Shown here piece after piece: positions 22,254 to 26,747 of a DNA stretch of 32,779 nucleotides. The notes under the pieces were generated by a model. It saw only the letters and a program-made list of their open reading frames with translations. It was not told where the DNA came from and did not search any database. Within the stretch, counting starts at the first letter, position 1, and every line of letters begins with the position of its first letter. The translations under genes and the position numbers were made by a program. Source of the DNA: Deltaproteobacteria bacterium (GTDB lineage Bacteria; Desulfobacterota; Syntrophia; Syntrophales; Smithellaceae); NCBI GenBank assembly GCA_026388535.1, contig JAPLJP010000170.1, positions 1-32,779 of the forward strand, written 5' to 3'.

Positions 22254-22573
22254 AATTTTCCCCCTCTATCTTTTGGTTCATTACTATGATCTGTCCCCGA
22301 AAAAATGGACACCTCTTTAATGTATTTTGACACTGTTTTGTTCGGAAAGCAACAGGGCTTTATCTGTGTTTATGGTTGATCAGGCGACGGTAGAAAGGGT
22401 AGGTAAAAAACGGCGCCGGTGAAAATGACATGACAAAAGGACAGTGAATTGCAGGGTTGTTTTTCCTGACGCGCCGCTTTTTAACTGTTCACAGAATTAC
22501 AAATTAAACGGAATTGTCCCTGATTATCATAATCGCGGTAAAAACAATTGGGGCAGCGCAGTTGCGCAACAAC
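22254..22573. other. intergenic stretch upstream of the acyl-CoA synthetase and downstream of the GH25-like gene
   Basis: 320 bases without a convincing gene. It holds the synthetase ribosome binding site, a segment starting near 22287 (TGATCTGTCCCCG followed by AAAAAATGGACAC) that resembles the terminal inverted repeat of some IS3-type elements, a copy of the intergenic repeat (22492-22526) and a palindrome GTTGCGCAAC (22561-22570). No transposase is left. Confidence 0.5.
22492..22526. repeat. intergenic repeat, copy C
   Basis: Core CAGAATTACAAATTAAACGG then AATTGTCCC and TGATTATC. It is about 22 of 24 bases identical to copy B at 23682 and related to copy A at 24431. All three read the same way and each follows the stop codon of a minus-strand gene; here it lies about 45 bases after the GH25-like gene. 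Confidence 0.65.
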
Positions 22574-23672: not shown

Positions 23673-23681
23673 TTATTTTTA

Positions 23682-23720
23682 CAGAATTACAAATTAGACG
23701 GAACAGTTCAGAATTATTTA
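23682..23720. repeat. intergenic repeat, copy B
   Basis: Core CAGAATTACAAATTAGACGG then AACAGTTCAGAATTATT. It lies between the stop of the nitroreductase gene and the promoter of the GH25-like gene. It is nearly identical to copy C over 24 bases. Confidence 0.65.
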
Positions 23721-23738: not shown

Positions 23739-24407
23739 TCATTCAACCCATGTGGTCAGGTTCTCAGCTGGCTCGCGCTCCGCGCGGATTTGATTGGCCG
23801 GGAAATCCGGGTCCGGATAGCCGAGAGCAATGGCAATCATCAGACGTTTGTTTTGGGGAATACCGGTGTGCTCGCGAACCACGTCCGGATATAAAACGCC
23901 TTGGTCTTCTATGCAGATGCCTAAGTTAAAATGCAGGGCCGCAAGACATATGTTCTGCATCACCGCGCCTAGATCCAGCAATGGGCCTGCTTCGCCCAAC
24001 ACCTTGTCGGTTGCGATGATAATGGCCGCCGGGGCATCGAAAAAGCGAAAGCCGCGCTCCAGCCACCAGGCACGTTTTTCCTTATCTTCGCGGGGAATGT
24101 CCATGGCCTTGAACAACTGCTTGGCCAGAGTTACCTGACGATCCTTGTAAACACCCTCATTTGGCCAGCCCACCACCAGATGATCCGGCACAATGGGCGT
24201 ACCTTTCTTTAGATTTTCCACTATGGCGGCTCTTAACCGGTTGAGCTTTTCGCCGCTTACCACCACAAATTCCCATGGCTGTGTATTCATAGCCGAGGGC
24301 GCCCGGCAGGCGATACTCAAAATTTCCTTGATTACGTCCTTGGGCACCGGCTTGTCTAAAAACGCCCGGATACTTTTGCGTTGTTGAATTCCTTCTATTA
24401 GCTCCAT
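23739..24407 (-). CDS. nitroreductase family protein
   Basis: 222 residues from the ATG at 24407, with AGGAG 9 bases upstream; the frame extends to 24446 but only into the repeat. FMN-binding family that reduces nitro groups, quinones or other small molecules with NAD(P)H. The N-terminal FMN-phosphate motif is RKSIRAFLDKPV, followed by ACRAPSAMNTQPWEFVVV; the C-terminal part has DLGAVMQNICLAALHFNLG and IALGYPDPD with PAEN near the end. Length fits the family. The physiological substrate cannot be read. Confidence 0.93.
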   Translation of the reverse strand: MELIEGIQQRKSIRAFLDKPVPKDVIKEILSIACRAPSAMNTQPWEFVVVSGEKLNRLRAAIVENLKKGTPIVPDHLVVGWPNEGVYKDRQVTLAKQLFKAMDIPREDKEKRAWWLERGFRFFDAPAAIIIATDKVLGEAGPLLDLGAVMQNICLAALHFNLGICIEDQGVLYPDVVREHTGIPQNKRLMIAIALGYPDPDFPANQIRAEREPAENLTTWVE

Positions 24408-24430
24408 CTTGCCCGCTCCTTTAATGTTTA

Positions 24431-24465
24431 AAGAATTACAAATCAAATAGAACCATTTCGATTAT
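24431..24465. repeat. intergenic repeat, copy A (diverged)
   Basis: Core AAGAATTACAAATCAAATAG then AACCATTTCGATTATT. It lies between the end of the HNH nuclease gene and the nitroreductase start, in the same orientation as copies B and C but with more changes. Confidence 0.55.
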
Positions 24466-24479
24466 TTTTAGAAGCGCTT

Positions 24480-24486
24480 GTTAGGT
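24480..24486. repeat. cassette-border-like inverted repeat, 3' side of the nuclease
   Basis: GTTAGGT, read on the minus strand as ACCTAAC followed by AAGCGCTTC. It includes the stop codon of the HNH gene. It fits the RYYYAAC box that opens an integron attC site and is the exact complement of the repeat at 25310-25316. The rest of an attC site is not present. Confidence 0.45.
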
Positions 24487-25290
24487 AACGTCCGTGGCAC
24501 TAGCCAGTAGACTTGTCGCCTGTTCGATGGTCAGTGGGGGCTTCTTCAAGTGGACAACTGCGTGACAGTTGGGACAAATCGGTCGCATGTCGCAGATAGG
24601 ATCAACTTGCCGCTTGCCAGGCTTCTCTCCTAATGGGCTCAGATGGTGGACTTGGATGAAGGAGGAAGCGATGGCGCCATAGCGGTCACCGAAAGTCATT
24701 CCACAGACAGCACACACACGCCCATAGTGCTTAAGGCACGCCTCGCGAGCAGCCGGATTGCGTTCGTACTTGTTCACGTAAACCTGTGTTGCGGCACCTT
24801 CCGCGAATTCAGTCGGAGATGCCATCTCGTCCGGGAAACCTAGGCCTCTGGCGCCGATGGCAGAAGCCCACGCACATTCGAGTACCAGAGCGATGTCCTC
24901 AGGAATATGGACCCCCGACATCTGCGTGCTCCAGTGGTAGTCGCGAAGTACACTCGACTGCAGTAGTTGATTGATGGGTAGCCGTGGCTCTTCGAAGAGC
25001 GCGTCGAAGGCGAGGTCAACGTAGTTCGTTACCATCCCCGTATTCGCACGGACGGGGTCCCAATGAGGCGCGGTGAACGGTGGGGACTTCGCCCATCCGG
25101 ATCCCACGATTCCTCGAGGATTCTGACCGAGGCGAATCAAGAAGAGGCGATCACCGGGTTCGACGCTTCGACTGTTGCCTACGCTCCAGCGAACCCACGA
25201 AGAGCCATCGCTACGAACCTCATTGAGTTCATCTTCAAGCGTGCCCCATGGATACTTAAGCGGGTTCCAAGCTAGCAAGTATGTATTCAA
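24481..25290 (-). CDS. HNH endonuclease with EVE/PUA-like N-terminal domain
   Basis: 269 residues from a TTG at 25290, with GGGGAGG 6 bases upstream; this gives the start NTYLLAWNP typical of the family, while the longer GTG start at 25311 has no site. Residues about 1-130 (GDRLFLIRLGQNPRGIVGSG) resemble EVE/PUA-like domains that read modified bases. The C-terminal 75 residues are an HNH nuclease: CAVCGMTFGDR, VHHLSP, CPNCHAVVH. The pattern suggests a modification-dependent restriction enzyme, by inference. The gene is richer in G+C than its neighbours and is framed by 7-base inverted repeats. It lies directly downstream of selC. Confidence 0.85.
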   Translation of the reverse strand: MNTYLLAWNPLKYPWGTLEDELNEVRSDGSSWVRWSVGNSRSVEPGDRLFLIRLGQNPRGIVGSGWAKSPPFTAPHWDPVRANTGMVTNYVDLAFDALFEEPRLPINQLLQSSVLRDYHWSTQMSGVHIPEDIALVLECAWASAIGARGLGFPDEMASPTEFAEGAATQVYVNKYERNPAAREACLKHYGRVCAVCGMTFGDRYGAIASSFIQVHHLSPLGEKPGKRQVDPICDMRPICPNCHAVVHLKKPPLTIEQATSLLASATDVT

Positions 25291-25309
25291 ATGATCCTCC
25301 CCAAGTTGC

Positions 25310-25316
25310 ACCTAAC
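25310..25316. repeat. cassette-border-like inverted repeat, 5' side of the nuclease
   Basis: ACCTAAC, read on the minus strand as GTTAGGT. It fits the GTTRRRY crossover box at which integron integrase joins cassettes, and it lies 20 bases before the TTG start of the nuclease, as in short-leader cassettes. Perfect complement of the repeat at 24480-24486. Confidence 0.45.
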
Positions 25317-25352
25317 AGTGTTTATATGGTGTAGAGGTATATTAAGTAGATA

Positions 25353-25450
25353 TGGCGGAAGTGCATGGGAATCGAACCCACCTGGGACGGTTTTAGCGCC
25401 CCACACCGGATTTGAAGTCCGGGAGGCCCACCAGTGACCTTGGCACTTCC
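25353..25450 (-). tRNA. selC: tRNA-Sec (anticodon TCA)
   Basis: Selenocysteine tRNA that inserts Sec at UGA codons when a SECIS element is present. It has the long 8-bp acceptor stem of this tRNA, GGAAGTGC pairing with GCACTTCC, discriminator G and an encoded CCA (25353-25355). The anticodon loop CTTCAAA holds TCA at 25413-25415 between stems CCGGA and TCCGG. A long variable arm (GGGGCG to GTCCC region) and the T-arm loop GGTTCGATTCC follow. The presence of selC implies SelA, SelB and selenoproteins elsewhere in the genome. moeA lies just upstream. Confidence 0.95.
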
Positions 25451-25457
25451 AGTTAGA

Positions 25458-25486
25458 AACTTAACTGCAAAATTGTAATGTGTCAA
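25458..25486 (-). promoter_or_regulatory. promoter of selC
   Basis: On the minus strand TTGACA (25481-25486) and TAAGTT (25458-25463) are separated by 17 bases. The mature tRNA 5' end at 25450 lies 7 bases after the -10 box, so the transcript may start at or next to the tRNA itself. Confidence 0.6.
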
Positions 25487-25508
25487 CATGCAAAAAAATC
25501 GGGGATTC

Positions 25509-26747
25509 TTAAAATTGAAGGGACTCTGACCGGGATAAAGAGTCATCCAGTAATTGAACCGTCACCTGCGCGCCCTTTTTGATTCGGCTTTCGTTTTCTC
25601 CCATGACAATAAGGCCGTTGGCGGTGACCATTGATTTCAGAATGCCGGAGCCTTGATCGCCGGTTGTGCTGGCAACATATTTATCTTTTTCTTTTTTAAC
25701 GACGGCACGGATAAAATGTCTGAAGCCCTCTTTTTTCTGAAATTCCTCAGTGCAGATTGCTTTTATCGTCTGGCGATATATTTTTGTATGCCCCTGCATT
25801 TTTAAAAGGGAAGGTCGCACGAACTGTTCAAAGGAAACCATCGCCGATACGGGATTACCCGGCAGGCCGAACAGGGGGACACCTTCAATGGCGCCGAAAG
25901 CCAGCGGTTTACCCGGTCTCATGGCCACCTGCCAGAAATGCATGGCGTTGCCGATTTCTCCCATGACGTTTTTCACAAAATCAAAATCGCCGACGGAAAC
26001 GCCGCCGGAGGAAATAATCACATCGGCATCCAGAGCGGTTTTGAATTTTTTCTGCAAGTCAGATTTTCTATCTCTGGTAATTCCCATCATTATTGGTATA
26101 GCGCCGCATTCCAGCACTTGCGCCGCCAGTGAATAACTGTTGCTGTTGACAAGTTTACCAGGCGGAGGATCTGTTTCGATATTGACAAGCTCATCGCCGG
26201 TGGACATGATCGCCACGCGCGGCTTTTGATAAACACTGACAAAAGATTTGCCTAAAGAGGCCAGCATACCGATATGCGCAGGCCTAAGAGCGCTTCCCCT
26301 TTTAACAACCAATTCTCCTCTCTTAACATCTTCACCGGCGAAACGAATATTCTCTTTTTTTTGTACTGAACTGTAGATGATGACAGTCTTGCCGTTTTTT
26401 TGAGTGTCTTCCTGACGAATAACCGCATCCGCGCCTTCAGGAATTACCGCGCCGGTCATGATGCGGGCGGCTTCTCCTGCTTTTATTTTTTTCAGGGCGA
26501 CTTTACCCGCCGGTATATCTTCGATGATTTTTAGTTGCAGAGGGTTGTTTTTTGTCGCGCCTTTAGTATCGGCATAGCGCACGGCATAGCCATCCATGGC
26601 CGAATTGTTGGCAGAGGGAATATTGCGCGGGGAGAAAATGTCCTCGCCGATGACTCTTCCGCGAGATTCCAGAATATTTATCTTTTCCAGACCCAGTGGC
26701 CGGAAATTAACGAGAATGGTCTTTAGTGCTTTTTCCACAGAAATCAT
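25509..26747 (-). CDS. moeA: molybdopterin molybdenumtransferase
   Basis: 412 residues from the ATG at 26747 (GGAG ahead); the frame continues to 26867 but those residues do not look like MoeA. It inserts molybdate (or tungstate) into adenylated molybdopterin, the last step of cofactor synthesis. Motifs include PSANNSAMDGYAVRY, AARIMTGAVIPEGADAVIRQED, MSTGDELV, SSGGVSVGDFDFV and RPGKPLAFG with LFGLPGNPVSAMVSFEQF. The family's C-terminal beta domain follows. It stands beside selC on the same strand, which fits molybdenum or tungsten selenoenzymes such as formate dehydrogenase, though none is seen here. Confidence 0.96.
   Translation of the reverse strand: MISVEKALKTILVNFRPLGLEKINILESRGRVIGEDIFSPRNIPSANNSAMDGYAVRYADTKGATKNNPLQLKIIEDIPAGKVALKKIKAGEAARIMTGAVIPEGADAVIRQEDTQKNGKTVIIYSSVQKKENIRFAGEDVKRGELVVKRGSALRPAHIGMLASLGKSFVSVYQKPRVAIMSTGDELVNIETDPPPGKLVNSNSYSLAAQVLECGAIPIMMGITRDRKSDLQKKFKTALDADVIISSGGVSVGDFDFVKNVMGEIGNAMHFWQVAMRPGKPLAFGAIEGVPLFGLPGNPVSAMVSFEQFVRPSLLKMQGHTKIYRQTIKAICTEEFQKKEGFRHFIRAVVKKEKDKYVASTTGDQGSGILKSMVTANGLIVMGENESRIKKGAQVTVQLLDDSLSRSESLQF

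What the first reader, a model, noticed from the sequence alone, without database searches (positions are those of the whole stretch)
24480..25316. HNH nuclease framed like an integron gene cassette, next to selC
GTTAGGT and ACCTAAC exactly bracket the gene: one 20 bases before the TTG start, the other containing the stop. They fit GTTRRRY and RYYYAAC, and are perfect complements, as the two ends of one cassette should be. After the stop comes AAGCGCTTC, common at the beginning of attC sites. The gene is single, GC-richer than its surroundings and of a defence type often carried in cassettes. The remainder of the attC site is missing, and a repeat copy starts there instead.
Basis: partly seen in the sequence, partly recalled or inferred. 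Interest (0 to 1): 0.56.

Follow-up and report, generated by a model that had tools for sequence, protein, structure and literature searches.

The report
Stranded integron cassette at stray attI
A single gene for a probable anti-phage DNA-cutting enzyme next to the selenocysteine tRNA gene is a stranded integron gene cassette that still abuts the core of an integron docking site, in a genome with no detectable integron integrase whose relatives carry such docking sites scattered around the chromosome.

Summary
The 7-mers alone are not rare, but exact framing by complementary core sites is: 1 of 41 window ORFs (this gene) against 0 of 170 background ORFs. The left boundary is not a neighbour's attC but an attI core: CCATATAAACACTG|TTAGGT (25310-25329, minus strand) matches the core of the integrons of the same genus, ordered lexA-intI-leader-attI-cassettes. 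Only the core survives, 23 nt from selC. The attC is cut after ACCTAACAAGCGC(TTC); leader DNA of the nitroreductase gene follows. No IntI was found in this 96%-complete MAG; its main integron (C179) lacks intI. Four of 15 HNH homologue loci examined are cassettes with attC-like ends. The protein is an EVE-like sensor fused to HNH, probably a modification-dependent (type IV) restriction enzyme. So it is a stranded, probably immobile defence cassette. The wider surprise: 23 of 35 exact attI cores in 16 of 40 related genomes have no intI or lexA nearby.

The parts
25316..25329 (-). attI core (left arm) CCATATAAACACTG; crossover expected between 25316 (G) and 25315 (T)
   Evidence: 18-mer including it: 16 hits in 12 of 40 genomes, reversed control 0; 16-mer: 35 hits in 16 of 40, control 0; sits 166-167 nt after the IntI match in intact integrons
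25310..25315 (-). cassette 5' end TTAGGT (with the preceding G, GTTAGGT)
24481..25290 (-). EVE-like/HNH nuclease gene, TTG start, 269 aa (276 aa if the GTG at 25311 is used)
24480..24486 (-). attC R'' box ACCTAAC, holds the stop codon; exact complement of the 5' core
24471..24479 (-). remaining attC start AAGCGCTTC; the last bases (from 24474) may already belong to the neighbour's leader
   Evidence: like TGCTAACAAGCGCATTC in the complete attC of L098; homology to the nitroreductase leader of L073 begins at CTTCTAAAAATAA
24408..24470 (-). ancestral leader of the nitroreductase-like gene
   Evidence: about 72% to L073, about 80% to L070 and L076 over parts of it
25353..25450 (-). selC (tRNA-Sec), integration hotspot in the genus
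   Evidence: ARAGORN, Rfam RF01852; tRNA fragments upstream of the nitroreductase-like gene in five relatives
25330..25352 (-). 23 nt between selC and the attI core, without counterpart in the loci held

Best explanation
It is an integron gene cassette that was taken up at an attI platform and then stranded. Shown: a single ORF is framed by exactly complementary core sites; the 5' core is joined to the attI core of this genus' own integrons; the attC is truncated after its first arm; no IntI was found in the assembly. Inferred: IntI inserted the circular cassette at a second attI platform (G|TT) beside selC, probably one carried by a selC island; deletions then removed the attI leader on the selC side and the rest of attC, with any later cassettes, on the nitroreductase side. 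Without attC and IntI the cassette cannot be excised, so it is now an ordinary chromosomal gene. Its product probably works like VcaM4I: an N-terminal EVE (PUA-like) pocket senses a modified base, probably a modified cytosine, and the C-terminal HNH domain cuts the DNA, restricting phages with modified genomes.
For: Framing: 1 of 41 window ORFs, 0 of 170 background ORFs. attI core: 35 exact sites in 16 of 40 genomes, reversed control 0, 0 in 260,148 strand-bases of background loci, next to intI in intact integrons. attC start as in complete attC sites of relatives. HNH homologues in cassettes with attC-like ends: 4 of 15 loci examined. Own genome: main integron with lexA, attI core and cassettes but no intI, no IntI over cut-off. 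selC islands in relatives, one with an attI leader inside (G002). EVE link: residues 9-168 at 31% to a protein region that Pfam calls EVE, upstream of an McrC-type gene; HNH part: PADLOC mREase_IV E 3e-4, PDB 5-methylcytosine-specific restriction enzyme A E 0.001.
Against: No complete attC here. No full-length homologue in any cassette. Ten of 15 homologue loci have no complementary ends. No relative shows the same cassette with attI and attC intact at selC, so the deletions are inferred. The EVE call is indirect: Pfam gives no EVE match to the protein itself. The absence of IntI could be an assembly gap (193 contigs).
Confidence: 0.86

Rival explanations
1. IntI inserted the cassette straight into a chance secondary (attG-type) GTT site beside selC, not into an attI platform.
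For: Off-target insertion of cassettes at GTT sites is documented (PMC10127599 and PMC12444791, passages); there is no leader in the window.
Against: The 14 bases on the left are the attI core of the genus; a secondary site would not carry them. The same 14-nt variant with ACTG also stands at a leader in G014 (L101).
Confidence: 0.06
2. Chance: an ordinary laterally acquired HNH gene whose ends happen to look like core sites.
For: The 7-mers alone are expected about 1.7 times in the window; no attC hairpin.
Against: Joint framing 0 of 170 in background and a 14-mer attI core exactly at the crossover.
Confidence: 0.04
3. The two 7-mers are terminal inverted repeats of a small transposable element.
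For: They are perfect inverted repeats at the ends of one gene.
Against: Seven bases only, no target duplication visible, and at other attI sites the complementary pair changes from cassette to cassette (GTTAGCA/TGCTAAC, GTTAGCC/GGCTAAC and so on), as cassette ends do and transposon ends do not.
Confidence: 0.01
4. The gene is simply the cargo of a selC genomic island and has no integron history.
For: selC is an island hotspot in the genus.
Against: There is no tRNA-Sec 3' fragment on the far side of the gene and no recombinase gene beside it; the attI core and the R'' box are left unexplained.
Confidence: 0.03

Closest known systems
Integron gene cassette in first position at attI (chromosomal integrons)
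   Same: attI core, 5' TTRRRY end, single ORF with close ribosome site, R'' box holding the stop, exact complement of the two ends
   Different: attI leader and intI absent, attC cut after its first arm, place is selC and not the lexA-polymerase locus
CALIN and integrase-inactivated integrons (PMC9024848 and PMC12444791, passages)
   Same: cassette DNA without a nearby integrase, at a locus away from the main integron
   Different: a CALIN is defined by attC sites (two or more by default in IntegronFinder 2); here there is no complete attC, but there is an attI core
Cassettes inserted at secondary or attG sites (PMC10127599 and PMC12444791, passages)
   Same: single cassette away from the main integron
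   Different: the left flank here is an attI core, not an arbitrary GTT
VcaM4I, EVE-HNH modification-dependent endonuclease (PMC7897488, passages)
   Same: N-terminal EVE-like region, C-terminal HNH nuclease
   Different: the EVE assignment here is indirect, through a Sinorhizobium AAA protein; the PDB sequence search did not report it; substrate unknown

Membership tests
Integron gene cassette | 5' end G|TTRRRY | tested here: met
   GTTAGGT 25310-25316 (-)
Integron gene cassette | R'' box RYYYAAC at the 3' end, complementary to the 5' core | tested here: met
   ACCTAAC 24480-24486 (-), exact complement; 0 of 170 background ORFs do this
Integron gene cassette | Complete attC with folded L''/L' stem and R' box | tested here: not met
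   Only R'' and the first bases remain; fold z -0.03 against -1.0 to -3.0 for five attC sites of other loci. Filed therefore as a degenerate remnant of a cassette, not as a complete one
Integron gene cassette | Located at attI or in an attC array | tested here: met
   attI core at 25316-25329
Functional integron | intI in the same genome | tested here: not met
   No TIGR02249 match over the cut-off in G000; C179 integron without intI
Functional integron | attI with full leader and cassette promoter | tested here: not met
   Only 14 nt of the core; no leader homology on the selC side
CALIN | At least two attC sites without integrase (IntegronFinder 2 default) | tested here: not met
   No complete attC at this locus
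EVE-HNH type IV restriction endonuclease | HNH nuclease motif | tested here: met
   VHH 221, CPNCH 246, VVH 252; Pfam HNH E 0.001, just below its cut-off
EVE-HNH type IV restriction endonuclease | EVE domain | tested here: inconclusive
   No direct Pfam EVE match; 31% identity over residues 9-168 to a protein stretch that overlaps a Pfam EVE match
EVE-HNH type IV restriction endonuclease | Cleaves DNA with modified bases | not testable with these tools
   Needs expression and assay

The most novel reading that the evidence does not exclude
In this lineage the integron is a distributed system: one IntI at the lexA locus, or none, serves many attI platforms scattered over the chromosome. These platforms share a leader of about 155 nt with hairpins and an attI core, recur at hotspots such as selC and a larB-larE-like interval, and each displays one or a few cassettes. 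The window is a worn-down platform of this kind.
Probability: 0.35. Interest if true: 0.75.

Novelty: new variant of a known kind. Interest (0 to 1): 0.52.

Why it matters
It shows how a defence gene picked up as an integron cassette can become fixed in a chromosome after integrase, leader and attC are lost, a state that attC-based searches cannot see. The cognate attI core is a handle for finding such fossils. If the scattered attI platforms are live, the picture of one attI beside one intI fails for this group, and a source of integrase-less cassettes becomes testable.

Tried and rejected
Bare 7-mer count: not significant. Rfam scan of 24200-25600: only tRNA-Sec. RNAalifold on a MAFFT alignment of 17 attC sites gave no structure, so no covariance model was built. 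A home-made attC finder was too loose to count with. AlphaFold without an alignment gave mean pLDDT 39, so no fold search was run. A viral-contig scan with the protein found nothing. The 83-aa integrase-like frame at G000:C59 looks like a remnant of another tyrosine recombinase, not IntI. One common attC stem sequence gave only 14 hits in 8 of 40 genomes and was not used as a count of attC sites. L094 has a complementary pair (GTTCGGT/ACCGAAC) but CRISPR-like repeats beside it and no clear attC; not counted as a cassette. Of 18 homologue loci that searches brought in (L009-L017, L087-L095), 15 were examined for ends; L011, L013 and L095 were dropped as short or partial frames. Tallies 'of 40' include the window's own genome.

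Full report
Setting. The window is contig C19 of a 2.86-Mb, 193-contig MAG (G000; 96% complete, 5.75% contamination). On the minus strand the order is a moeA-like gene, selC, the HNH gene, a nitroreductase-like gene and a 336-aa gene.

Check of the observation. What is unusual is their placing. For every ORF of at least 100 aa I asked whether a RYYYAAC at its stop has its exact complement within 45 nt upstream of a start. In the window 1 of 41 ORFs passes, this one. In 13 background loci of relatives 0 of 170 pass, and in 13 loci with integron or cassette DNA 6 of 210 pass. The gene has 56% GC against 45% for the window. The TTG at 25290, with GGGGAGG in front, is the likelier start and gives 269 aa.

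The 5' boundary is an attI core. A BLAST of the flanks against all loci then held found CCATATAAACAATGTTAG, one base different, in front of another HNH gene, in G009 (L012). As an 18-mer (A or C at that place) the motif occurs 16 times in 12 of 40 genomes (own included); the reversed control gave 0. As a 16-mer ending in TGTT it occurs 35 times in 16 of 40 genomes, control again 0. It does not occur in 260,148 strand-bases of background loci. In the intact integrons of the genus (L131 G006, L132 G002, L133 G013, L134 G009) the order is a lexA-like gene, intI, a leader of about 155 nt, this core, then the first cassette, all in one direction; the motif starts 166-167 nt after the IntI match ends. 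So in the window the cassette TTAGGT... is joined to an attI core. Only the 14-nt left arm CCATATAAACACTG is kept, 23 nt from the end of selC; those 23 nt have no counterpart in the loci held. From memory, the core resembles that of class 1 attI; this was not tested.

The 3' boundary is a broken attC. After ACCTAAC come AAGCGCTTC and then DNA that aligns with the leader of the nitroreductase-like gene in relatives (72% to L073, about 80% to L070 and L076 over parts of it). Complete attC sites of relatives begin in the same way, for example TGCTAACAAGCGCATTC in L098, and five of them fold with z between -1.0 and -3.0; the 70 nt of the window give z -0.03.

Hotspot. The selC-nitroreductase interval differs in most relatives. 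tRNA-Sec 3' fragments lie upstream of the nitroreductase-like gene in G001, G002, G007, G008 and G013, as expected of islands integrated at selC. In G005 two contig ends overlap in an interval of about 140 nt without insert. The island of G002 itself contains an attI leader followed by an ATPase-like gene (C323, with TGTC in place of TGTT). The window has no second tRNA fragment. An integron platform brought by a selC island and later trimmed is therefore plausible, but inferred.

No integrase. TIGR02249 scores over its cut-off in 22 of 40 genomes; in G000 the best hits are below it, and by my reading their frames are XerC/XerD-like. The chromosomal integron of G000 is at C179: lexA-like gene, no intI, part of the leader, attI core, an array of cassettes, then a DNA polymerase IV-like gene (names from my reading of the translation). 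A third leader, with a variant core (TATATAAACAATG) and a cassette with exact complementary ends, is at C95. The cassette at selC thus lies in a genome that had integron activity and seems to have lost it. An assembly gap cannot be excluded.

Homologues. No full-length homologue was found: plasmids 205 records, one of which covers at least 80% of the query, at 26% identity; genome contigs 2 loci, C-terminal part only; same-order sample 8 of 60 genomes, own included, the rest C-terminal only; phylum sample 10 of 395 genomes at E 1e-20, own included, the other nine matching only from residue 140 on; phage records 7, three of them covering 83% at 23% identity; viral contigs 0. Of 15 homologue loci examined for ends, 5 have an exact complementary pair (L009, L010, L012, L016, L094) and 4 of these an attC-like site after it (all but L094); 10 have no pair. 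L009 lies inside a cassette array with attC-like sites on both sides. L012 lies at an attI core with a full attC, between genes that I read as larB and larE. L016 has the same GTTAGGT/ACCTAAC pair as the window and an attC-like hairpin.

The protein. The C-terminal part has CAVC, VHH, CPNCH and VVH, matches PADLOC mREase_IV at E 3e-4 and the PDB entry of the 5-methylcytosine-specific restriction enzyme A at E 0.001, and falls just below Pfam's HNH cut-off. Residues 9-168 align at 31% with a Sinorhizobium AAA protein; most of that stretch is called EVE by Pfam (E 1.5e-8), and the gene is followed by an McrC-type gene. The architecture EVE-HNH is that of VcaM4I, which flips 5mC or 5hmC into the EVE pocket and cuts with the HNH domain (PMC7897488, passages); EVE-HNH and EVE-McrB fusions are described as type IV restriction systems (PMC7641849, passages). 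The function here is inferred.

A wider pattern. Of the 35 exact attI cores, 7 have an IntI match upstream (in G018:C26, G001:C117 and G039:C16 only fragments or broken pieces), 2 have lexA without intI (G000:C179, G022:C33), 3 sit at or near contig starts and cannot be judged, and 23, the window included, have neither within up to 2.5 kb of the upstream DNA held. G008, a 10-contig genome of 98% completeness, has three cores and no IntI at E 1e-40. G009 has one IntI on C36 and a separate leader-attI-HNH cassette on C1. An exact complement of the first cassette's 5' core follows within 1.7 kb at 19 of 35 sites; 11 do not show it and 5 have too little DNA held; at least one of the 19 (G001:C53) does not look like attC, and about one in ten sites would show such a 7-mer by chance (the chance figure is my estimate). 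At the same larB-like interval as in G009, G015 carries a cassette-like start behind a different attI type, TATACAGACTGTATAAACATTG|TT, a sequence that occurs 25 times in 16 of 40 genomes with up to 2 mismatches. I found no description of scattered attI platforms in the library searches (listings only, plus the passages cited); CALINs at fixed loci in Xanthomonas are the nearest (PMC12444791, passages). The library lacks most subscription journals.

Verdict. The object is a stranded cassette at an attI core, not an active one. Taken alone it is a neat but modest case; the scattered attI platforms that it led to are the part a specialist would want to follow.

Noticed in passing
L116 (G000:C179), minus strand: Main chromosomal integron of the own genome: lexA-like gene, intI missing, attI core, an array of cassettes, then a DNA polymerase IV-like gene. 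The integron sits inside what looks like an SOS gene group.
   Followed up: partly
L115, L131-L134, L177, L181, L185, L191 and others: A conserved leader of about 155 nt precedes attI: a palindrome GGGATATTAT...ATAATATCCC and a hairpin GCCGACAG...CTGTCGGC, the latter with paired changes (for example GCTGAC...GTCAGC in L127). Copies are scattered without intI.
   Followed up: partly
L182, L186, L188, L178: Short platforms GGGATATTATGCCGAT[CCATATAAACAATG]TT, as if the leader palindrome had been fused to the core through their shared GATCCATATAA. The place is similar in G010 (L188) and G002 (L178).
   Followed up: no
L204 (G015:C11) and L195 (G009:C1): The interval after a larB-like gene holds attI platforms of two different types in two genomes and no such platform in others: a possible hotspot for platforms.
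   Followed up: partly
L208 (G000:C95): A third attI-type leader in the own genome, with a REP-like palindrome inserted in it and a cassette framed by GTTCTGC/GCAGAAC.
   Followed up: partly
window 22488-22527, 23678-23717, 24427-24466: A 40-nt repeat in three copies, each upstream of a minus-strand gene; the copy at 24427 belongs to the nitroreductase leader and has relatives in other genomes. Possibly a shared promoter or operator.
   Followed up: no
L182:3455-3548: ARAGORN calls a second tRNA-Sec just after a cassette at an attI core in G008, unlike the normal selC; it may be a false call.
   Followed up: no
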